Origin: Clostridiales bacterium
GTDB lineage: Bacteria > Bacillota > Clostridia > Oscillospirales > CAG-272
Direction: 5' to 3'
Assembly (NCBI GenBank): GCA_022793655.1
Contig: JAAWDG010000014.1
Location: forward strand, 160,636 to 224,635
DNA length: 64,000 bases
Under the pieces are notes generated by a model, which did not search any database, was not told the DNA's origin, and worked only from the letters and a program-made list of their open reading frames with translations. Position 1 is the first letter of the stretch, and the number at the start of each line of letters is the position of its first letter. Positions 9,720 to 63,594 of this stretch are shown here, piece after piece. A program made the translations under genes and the position numbers.

Positions 9720-9815
9720 ATACAAGGTTATGCCCTGATTGAGAAATAATATGATGAATATGTAAGACTAAAAAAGTCCCCACAAAAGCGGAGGCTTTTA
9801 AACTACCTATGTATG

Positions 9816-9842
9816 AAGAAAGCGGCCCAAGGCCGCTTTCTT
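9816..9842. terminator. GC-rich hairpin between convergent small genes
   Basis: GAAAGCGGCC (9818-9827) pairs with GGCCGCTTTC (9831-9840), with AA/TT extension and a CAA loop. The T-run is better on the plus side; it can serve both the zinc-ribbon gene and the convergent Cys-rich gene. Confidence 0.65.
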
Positions 9843-9861
9843 TGTTGCAAGCTCAGTCGAA

Positions 9862-10059
9862 TTAATTCCAACCGCATCTGCAGCGGTTCTGACTGCATCC
9901 GCAGCGATTTTGGTTGCGCTCACAGCGGCTTTGGCCGCATCCGCAGCGGCTTTGACCGCATCCGCAGCGGCTTTGACCGCATCCACAGCGGCTTTGGCTG
10001 CGACCGCAGCGGTTCTGGCTGCAACGGCAGCGGTTATGACATAAACAGTTACAAATCAT
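9862..10059 (-). CDS. Cysteine-rich heptad-repeat miniprotein, function unknown
   Basis: The product is 65 aa with 17 cysteines. After MICNCLCH it is built from eight copies of a 7-residue repeat with consensus (S/N)RCGCGQ, ending RCGWN. The minus strand is preferred over the repetitive plus-strand reading because AAGGAAGGTG lies 6 bases before the ATG and a -10/-35 pair (TATAAT, TTCACC, spacer 17) lies at 10092-10120. The spaced Cys with Arg and Gly suggest metal binding, disulfide cross-linking (for example a coat or wall protein) or a peptide precursor; the sequence does not decide. No export signal is visible. I know of no named family that fits. Confidence 0.6.
   Translation of the reverse strand: MICNCLCHNRCRCSQNRCGRSQSRCGCGQSRCGCGQSRCGCGQSRCERNQNRCGCSQNRCRCGWN
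9880..10035 (-). repeat. 21-bp in-frame tandem repeat
   Basis: About seven to eight units of 21 bp (plus-strand core GCATCCGCAGCGGCTTTGAC) encode the heptads of the Cys-rich miniprotein. The three middle units are nearly identical, the outer ones diverged, as in slippage-prone arrays. Confidence 0.85.
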
Positions 10060-10091
10060 TTTTTTTCACCTTCCTTATCGACTGTATTCTT

Positions 10092-10120
10092 ATTATATGA
10101 TGGCCTTGTGAAAAGGTGAA
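10092..10120 (-). promoter_or_regulatory. Predicted promoter of the Cys-rich miniprotein gene
   Basis: On the minus strand: TTCACC, 17-nt spacer, TATAAT, about 32 bases upstream of the ATG. Confidence 0.55.
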
Positions 10121-24724: not shown

Positions 24725-24752
24725 TTGACAAATTTGTATTTTATGGTATAGT
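24725..24752 (+). promoter_or_regulatory. Promoter abutting the structured tandem array
   Basis: TTGACA (24725-24730), 16-nt spacer, TATAGT (24747-24752). Transcription would start near 24759, exactly at the first hairpin of the array. Confidence 0.7.
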
Positions 24753-24756
24753 ATAA

Positions 24757-25225
24757 ATAAGAATAACTCTTACGAGTTATTCTTAGCAAGTTTACCTTTT
24801 CGCTTATCCAAGCGAAATTCCGGCAGAGCCGGAAACGCTAAACTTGCAGGTTGCTGAAAGGTTGAAGAAGTTATAAGAATAACTCTTATGAGTTATTCTT
24901 AGCAAGTGTACCTTTTCGTTTGTGCGAGCGAAATTCCGGCAGAGCCGGAAACGCTAAACTTGCAGGTTGCTGAAAGGTTGAAGAAGTTATAAGAGTAACT
25001 CTTATGAGTTATTCTTAGCAAGTTTACCTTTTCGCTTATCCAAGCGAAATTCCGGCAGAGCCGGAAACGCTAAACTTGCAGATTGCTGAAAGGTTGAAGA
25101 AGTTATAAGAATAACTCTTACGAGTATTCTTAGCAAGTTTACCTTTTCGTTTATGCAAGCGGAATTTTGTGCTTTTTTTCCGAAACGTCCGACTGACTGC
25201 TTTGCTGAAAATTTGTACTTATAGG
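24757..25225 (+). repeat. Four-unit 116-bp tandem array with hairpin plus three-way junction
   Basis: Units begin near 24761, 24877, 24993 and 25109, period exactly 116; units 1-3 are almost identical and unit 4 decays in its second half. Each unit folds the same way. H1: AAGAATAACTC / GAGTTATTCTT with a TTAC or TTAT loop. Closing stem: GCAAGTTTA / TAAACTTGC. Inside it are H2, TTTCGCTT / AAGCGAAA, and H3, TTCCGGC / GCCGGAA. Then comes a tail with GGTTGCTGAAAGG. Unit 2 keeps H2 by G-U pairs. No coding potential is evident. The region fills the gap between the dehydratase and the next gene (24696-25295). A related single copy is at 63.5 kb. Confidence 0.9.
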
Positions 25226-63470: not shown

Positions 63471-63594
63471 GATGCAATAAGAATAAGCCTGCGGTTTATT
63501 CTGAAAAAGTTTTACTTTACGCTTTTCCCAGCGTAATTCCAGCAAAGCTGGAACCGTTAAACTTTTCGGTTGCTGAAACTTTGTGATGCAATAA
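63471..63594 (+). repeat. Single copy of the structured repeat with 10-bp direct flanks
   Basis: Same fold and order as the 24.8-kb array. H1: AGAATAAGCC / CGGTTTATTCT. Closing stem: AAAAGTTT / AAACTTTT. H2: TTACGCT / AGCGTAA. H3: TTCCAGC / GCTGGAA. Then a GGTTGCTGAAA tail. Several pairs differ from the array but stay paired (G-C to A-T in H3, G-C and C-G to A-T in the closing stem, T-A to A-T in H2). GATGCAATAA occurs at 63471-63480 and again at 63585-63594, either a target duplication or a remnant of tandem copies (spacing 114). Confidence 0.85.

What the first reader, a model, noticed from the sequence alone, without database searches (positions are those of the whole stretch)
24757..25225. 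Undescribed structured repeat family: hairpin plus three-way junction, in a 116-bp tandem array
Four tandem units fold identically into one 11-bp hairpin and a junction closed by a 9-bp stem holding an 8-bp and a 7-bp hairpin. A distant copy (63.5 kb) keeps every helix through compensatory base changes in four different stems, which argues for selection on structure rather than on sequence. I recognise no known riboswitch, REP or CRISPR element in it. It could be a new small-RNA class, a mobile intergenic element acting as RNA, or a protein-binding repeat.
Basis: partly seen in the sequence, partly recalled or inferred. Interest (0 to 1): 0.78.

Follow-up and report, generated by a model that had tools for sequence, protein, structure and literature searches.

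The report
Promoter-hugging hairpin-and-junction repeat family
An uncultured clostridial bacterium carries over 100 copies of a small folded DNA repeat that sits almost exactly where genes start being transcribed; its folds are preserved by evolution, but in a way that points to folded DNA, probably a tiny mobile element, rather than to a working RNA.

Summary
The repeat is real and unmatched in Rfam. The fourth of the four array units is degenerate. It belongs to a dispersed family: 124 covariance-model hits in this 1.84-Mb genome, at least 64 in a sister species, and a sequence-unrelated family of the same design (42 BLAST hits) in another family of the order. All four helices covary strongly (score 0.32-0.56 versus 0.14-0.19 shuffled).

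Three results change the interpretation. (1) Copies sit on sigma70 promoters, starting at the -10 box: a -35 TTG lies at the exact spacing in 39/106 first units (14/29 in the other family), and copies point with the downstream gene. (2) Copies are present or absent between sister species, and single copies carry copy-matched -10-like direct repeats. (3) One-sided departures give G·U and A·C about equally (124:101; tRNA control 32:0), so pairing is not conserved as RNA pairing. Compensation looks stepwise, so template switching alone does not explain it.

Best reading: a non-autonomous mobile DNA element inserting at promoter -10 boxes, whose DNA fold matters for mobility; it becomes a 5' leader passively. 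The mobiliser is unknown. New variant of the small structured repeat/MITE kind.

The parts
24725..24752 (+). sigma70-type promoter: TTGACA (24725-24730), 16-bp spacer, extended -10 TATAGT (24747-24752); predicted start of transcription at about the foot of the first hairpin
   Evidence: 11 of 12 matches with TG before the -10; 42 of 43 bases from the -35 into the hairpin identical in sister species G001
24757..24872 (+). unit 1 of the array (complete)
   Evidence: CM 120 bits
24758..24785 (+). unit 1 hp1: 12-bp palindromic hairpin, loop TTAC
   Evidence: fold; covaries in 29 copies
24786..24847 (+). unit 1 three-way junction: P1 24786-24794/24839-24847, P2 24798-24805/24810-24817, P3 24818-24824/24828-24834
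   Evidence: fold (RNA), (DNA, both strands); covariation
24848..24872 (+). unit 1 tail, AGGTTGCTGAAAGGTTGAAGAAGTT; family consensus GGTNGCTGAAACTTTATG
   Evidence: alignment A1
24873..24988 (+). unit 2; hp1 intact, T>G in the closing stem, RNA MFE differs from unit 1
   Evidence: CM 106 bits
24989..25104 (+). unit 3 (complete)
   Evidence: CM 117 bits
25105..25210 (+). unit 4, degenerate: hp1 kept (one base short), junction lost
   Evidence: z -0.9; CM 43 bits
25296..26423 (+). downstream co-directional gene, phosphodiester glycosidase family (NAGPA, PF09992)
63471..63480 (+). 5' copy of direct repeat GATGCAATAA flanking the single copy (its last bases overlap hp1)
63478..63580 (+). single copy: hp1 63480-63502; P1 63505-63512/63559-63566; P2 63517-63523/63530-63536; P3 63537-63543/63547-63553
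   Evidence: absent at the syntenic site in G001
63585..63594 (+). 3' copy of direct repeat GATGCAATAA

Best explanation
A lineage-specific family of small (about 105-116 bp), non-autonomous mobile DNA elements. Each unit is a palindromic hairpin (hp1), a three-way junction (P1 closing, P2 and P3 inside) and a short conserved tail. Units insert in fixed orientation at the -10 box of sigma70 promoters (extended form TGNTATAAT), often leaving a -10-like direct repeat on each side so that a promoter remains. Arrays grow by tandem duplication or repeated insertion at the same place. The folds are kept because folded DNA (a hairpin in single-stranded DNA, or a cruciform) is needed for mobility, not because the RNA works; being transcribed as a 5' leader follows from the position. 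Shown: dispersal, compensatory change that accumulates with divergence, promoter placement and orientation, presence/absence between sister species, strand-symmetric departures. Inferred: the mobility mechanism, the role of folded DNA, that the direct repeats are target duplications. Unknown: the enzyme.
For: 124 model hits in this genome, many in sister G001, an independent family of the same plan in G044. Covariation in each set. TTG at exactly -28 from hp1 in 39/106 first units and TATAAT at -5 in 35, 14/29 in G044 with unrelated spacers; TGnTAnnAT sites at elements have a 17-bp-spaced TTG in 24/39 against 34/329 elsewhere. Orientation 30:7 with tandem genes; divergent 28 against convergent 8. 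Presence/absence at syntenic sites in G000 and G001. Copy-matched -10-like direct repeats around single copies, 8.51 against 7.80 of 12, 0/2000 shuffles. G·U:A·C 124:101, 40:26, 26:24 against tRNA 32:0. Two-sided changes rare between close copies and rising with divergence. Downstream genes functionally diverse.
Against: No mobiliser found: Y1 and IS110 transposases absent from the carriers, integrases not distinctive. No terminal inverted repeats seen by eye. The direct-repeat test fails in G001 (n=9) and G044. Some copies are not on a promoter. A single-stranded DNA fold might also be expected to tolerate G·T on one strand more than A·C, so symmetry fits a cruciform better than one fixed strand.
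Confidence: 0.5

Rival explanations
1. A functional RNA leader: the 5' hairpin and three-way junction in the mRNA control stability, termination or translation of the downstream gene, and selection acts on the RNA.
For: Placement at transcription starts and co-orientation; strong covariation; paired sites change less than unpaired ones between close copies; kept at orthologous promoters in two species with stems changed but paired.
Against: G·U and A·C about equal against 32:0 in tRNA; lower half of hp1 is upstream of the predicted start in most first units yet covaries; downstream genes share no pathway; present or absent at orthologous genes.
Confidence: 0.2
2. A cassette system: different folded modules are exchanged by site-specific recombination at -10-like cores, in the manner of an integron but with the promoter -10 as the core site.
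For: In G044 a second, cloverleaf-type module is bounded by the same GGTATAATA cores and mixed with the hairpin/junction units; several junction sequence types share the same flanks; hp1 also occurs doubled or alone.
Against: Integrases are not distinctive of carriers; G000 and G044 have only two hits each. No gene cassettes seen. Cores could equally be insertion targets.
Confidence: 0.14
3. Palindromes kept by mutation, not selection: template switching during replication copies one arm onto the other, producing paired changes in one step in otherwise idle relics.
For: Strand-symmetric departures are what such a process predicts; the mechanism is documented (PMC8794818, abstract seen).
Against: It predicts two-sided changes already between the closest copies; observed 0 against 2 one-sided at 95% identity or more and 3 against 30 at 90-95%, rising only with divergence. 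It does not explain the promoter placement.
Confidence: 0.13

Closest known systems
Pneumococcal BOX and RUP repeats
   Same: Small dispersed intergenic repeats, AT-rich, foldable, BOX with modular tandem parts (PMC3049150).
   Different: BOX, RUP and SPRITE are over-represented between convergent genes (PMC3049150); here copies are enriched upstream of genes, co-oriented and at the -10. BOX and RUP have terminal inverted repeats; none seen here.
Correia elements of Neisseria
   Same: Small mobile repeats close upstream of genes that affect promoters (PMC10969869).
   Different: Correia elements carry promoters; here the -35 and spacer belong to the host promoter (spacers unrelated between copies) and the fold is a hairpin plus three-way junction.
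REP/BIME palindromes mobilised by RAYT (Y1) transposases
   Same: Dispersed DNA hairpins moved in trans (general knowledge; REP families in PMC3733652, listed).
   Different: No Y1 transposase in the carriers; much larger unit with a three-way junction; fixed place on promoters.
Integron attC sites
   Same: Structure kept while sequence drifts; arrays below a promoter (general knowledge).
   Different: No cassette genes in the units; no dedicated integrase found; different fold; attC motifs not searched.
bcr1 repeats of the Bacillus cereus group
   Same: About 100-150-bp dispersed structured repeats with features of mobile elements (general knowledge; papers listed, not read).
   Different: Sequence and fold not compared here; no reported tie to the -10 box known to me.

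Membership tests
MITE (miniature inverted-repeat transposable element) | Short, dispersed, non-coding, AT-rich with paired secondary structure | tested here: met
MITE (miniature inverted-repeat transposable element) | Terminal inverted repeats | tested here: inconclusive
   None seen by eye between the hp1 start and the tail end; no systematic search; P1 is an internal inverted repeat
MITE (miniature inverted-repeat transposable element) | Target-site duplication | tested here: inconclusive
   Copy-matched direct repeats in G000, not significant in G001 (n=9) or G044
MITE (miniature inverted-repeat transposable element) | Parent transposase present in the host | tested here: inconclusive
   Three families searched; no candidate; other families not searched
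REP/RAYT element | Y1 (HUH) transposase PF01797 in the genome | tested here: not met
   Absent from G000, G001, G044, G328; control genomes ring
IS110-type element with bridge RNA | IS110 transposase PF01548 in the genome | tested here: not met
   No match in G000, G001, G044; one sub-threshold match in G328
Known structured RNA (Rfam) | Match at the family's gathering score | tested here: not met
Functional RNA (any class) | G·U tolerated in helices far more than A·C on the transcribed strand | tested here: not met
   124:101, 40:26, 26:24 against tRNA 32:0
Functional RNA (any class) | Transcribed and processed as a defined RNA | not testable with these tools
   No expression data
Riboswitch | Downstream genes of a common pathway | tested here: not met
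   Diverse housekeeping and other families downstream
Integron attC | Dedicated integron integrase | tested here: inconclusive
   Two phage-integrase-family hits in G000, not classified further; attC core motif not searched

The most novel reading that the evidence does not exclude
A class of promoter-seeking mobile DNA elements, shared across families of one order with unrelated sequences: folded modules (hairpin plus three-way junction, also a cloverleaf) that insert as single-stranded or extruded DNA at the -10 region, where RNA polymerase opens the duplex, and swap at -10 cores, so that each insertion keeps a live promoter and becomes an mRNA leader.
Probability: 0.17. Interest if true: 0.85.

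Novelty: new variant of a known kind. Interest (0 to 1): 0.57.

Why it matters
If right, insertion can be aimed at the promoter -10 box itself, placing structured sequence at transcription starts across a genome without destroying promoters. The G·U against A·C count with a tRNA control is also a cheap general check: strong covariation alone does not prove a functional RNA, because hairpins kept at the DNA level covary too.

Tried and rejected
Rfam at both thresholds: nothing. Viral contigs: no match to two exact patterns. Mobilisers: Y1 and IS110 absent; phage integrases present in every genome, so uninformative. Empty site for the 63.5-kb copy: found, but too diverged to read the duplication exactly. 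G003 as outgroup for the array promoter: there the gene follows closely behind another gene, so no comparison. Weak hits in G034, G033 and G012 share a three-way-junction look but were not shown to be the same family. The order-wide survey found only G000, G044, G328 and G119 among 394 genomes, but only 9 candidates per genome were scored, so it is a lower bound. Operator-site reading of hp1 rejected: its two arms change together between copies instead of holding to one consensus. Literature searches found no described family with this placement; most subscription journals are not covered.

Full report
WHAT IS THERE. The window holds a 116-bp tandem array at 24757-25166. Units 1-3 each consist of a 12-bp hairpin (hp1), a three-way junction (closing stem P1; P2 and P3 inside) and a 25-nt tail. 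Units 1 and 3 fold so by minimum energy; unit 2 carries a P1 mismatch and its RNA MFE differs; unit 4 keeps hp1 but not the junction. A single copy lies at 63478-63580. Rfam has no match.

A DISPERSED FAMILY. BLAST with unit 1 gave 51 matches in the 1.84-Mb genome, a few of them reverse-strand self-matches of the palindromic hp1. I aligned 29 copies with MAFFT (A1) without any structural model, so the covariation count on A1 was not fitted to one: 91.5% of cells paired (shuffled 81.2), 22 of 35 pairs with two-sided changes (13.7), covariation score 0.321 (0.141), and at most 0.09 when the partner is slid by 1-3 columns. The structure itself was drawn from these sequences, so the slide control favours it somewhat. 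Covariance model R1 then gave 124 hits at E<=0.001 at home, the weakest of which may be fragments or opposite-strand matches. Sister species G001 gave 64 hits, the number of candidates scored, and G002 and G003 of the same genus none. G001's contigs correspond by length to the MAG 'Clostridiales bacterium isolate ABMPRH_136_2'. In G001, 51 units gave score 0.508 against 0.185, with two-sided changes in all 35 pairs (alignment fitted to the model). A genome of another family of the order (G044) holds its own family of 42 BLAST hits with unrelated primary sequence and the same plan. Over the three genomes the score is 0.561 against 0.182 (also fitted).

POSITION. Of 78 arrays in G000, those between tandem genes point with the genes 30:7, and 28 lie between divergent against 8 between convergent genes. 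Genes were taken from a simple ORF caller. Aligned on hp1, the first units of 106 arrays in G000 and G001 have TTG at exactly -28 in 39, TATAAT at -5 in 35 and TG at -8 in 65; units inside arrays lack the -35. This is a sigma70 promoter, TTGAAA-N17-TATAAT, whose last T is the first base of hp1. In G044, TTG lies at -28 in 14 of 29 first units, with unrelated spacers, so promoter and element are separate things. The -10 motif alone does not explain it: TGnTAnnAT sites at elements have TTG at 17-bp spacing in 24/39, other such sites in the held sequence in 34/329. In the array of this window the -10 (TATAGT) lies six bases further upstream, so there transcription should start at about the foot of hp1. 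From the -35 into hp1, 42 of 43 bases are identical in G001, where the locus keeps hp1 (with a two-sided change), a second hp1 and a degenerate junction. Placement is opposite to BOX, RUP and SPRITE, which are over-represented between convergent genes (PMC3049150).

MOBILITY. In syntenic DNA of about 76-84% identity: the 63.5-kb copy is absent from G001; an element at the end of a gene in G001 is absent at G000 C7:80988-81039; one promoter carries hp1 only in G000 but hp1 and two junction units in G001; another carries one unit against two, with the stems changed but paired. Single copies in G000 have -10-like direct repeats matched within the copy: 8.51 of 12 against 7.80 +- 0.13 when shuffled, 0 of 2000, for example GATGCAATAA at 63471 and 63585. 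The same test fails in G001 (n=9) and in G044, where the motif is nearly invariant; so target duplication is suggested, not proven.

RNA OR DNA? If the transcribed strand were selected as RNA, G·U should far outnumber A·C. Dropping badly paired columns, G000 has 124 G·U and 101 A·C, G001 40:26, and the model-free alignment 26:24. The G000 and G001 counts come from model-fitted alignments, which lean towards G·U if anything. The 23 distinct tRNAs in the held loci (mostly this genus, some from other genomes) give 32:0; ARAGORN itself requires good stems, so that control is biased in favour of the contrast. Among changes relative to the nearest copy the count is 77:60. In G044 it is 41:22, but 23 of the 41 come from two columns at a helix foot or the junction. 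Before columns were dropped, a few helix subsets deviated (hp1 upper part 10:1 in A5; P1 26:51 in A3); with this many subsets I do not read them. An alternative for the symmetry is neutral decay of idle copies, which dilutes any strand signal; against it, non-standard types shared by four or more copies are also even (13 G·U types, 10 A·C types). In most first units the lower half of hp1 precedes the predicted start of transcription, yet it covaries. Both DNA strands of unit 1 fold into the same shape (z -7.8 and -8.0).

SELECTION OR TEMPLATE SWITCHING? Template switching can create paired changes in one step (PMC8794818, abstract). Here two-sided changes are 0 against 2 one-sided between copies at least 95% identical, 3 against 30 at 90-95%, and outnumber one-sided only below 70% identity; paired sites differ about 3-4 times less than unpaired ones between close copies. 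That fits stepwise selection on pairing. Copy pairs are not independent and rows were fitted to R1, so this is a trend, not a formal test. Together with strand symmetry it points to folded DNA.

MECHANISM. The best reading is a non-autonomous mobile DNA element that recognises promoter -10 regions and needs its DNA fold to move. Carriers lack Y1 and IS110 transposases; G000 and G044 have two phage-integrase-family hits each. MAG binning can lose mobile genes, so absence is weak evidence. G044 also has a cloverleaf-type module bounded by the same GGTATAATA cores, which keeps a cassette-exchange reading open. Promoter placement could also reflect survival of insertions there rather than targeting; the exact register with the -10 favours targeting, but was not tested separately.

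LIMITS. Draft genomes only, no expression data, a capped and shallow taxonomic survey, no fresh insertion read to the base, and choices (filters, column drops, offsets examined) made while looking at the data.

Noticed in passing
L102:1602-1770; also L104, L116, L123 (G044): A second folded module, apparently a four-way (cloverleaf) stem plus two hairpins, bounded by the same GGTATAATA boxes; the L104 version has the stems changed but paired.
   Followed up: partly
L107, L109, L112, L128 (G044); L052:9140-9200 (G001); G000 C7 about 75.77 kb (L018, L173): hp1 occurs doubled in front of the junction, or alone behind a promoter without the junction, as if it were a module of its own.
   Followed up: no
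L133, L136, L139 (G328, a third family of the order): Hairpin plus three-way junction units with a similar junction core but no clear -10 box in front.
   Followed up: no
L044, L050 (G034): GC-rich dispersed repeats next to tRNA genes with a three-way-junction look; relation to this family not established.
   Followed up: no
G000 contig ends: C11:1, C24:1, C23:50, C10:65609, C21:67703: Several copies lie at contig ends, so the family probably breaks the assembly and the true copy number may be higher.
   Followed up: no
window 9872-10040: A 21/63-bp tandem repeat inside a small ORF (9813-10100), unrelated to the array.
   Followed up: no
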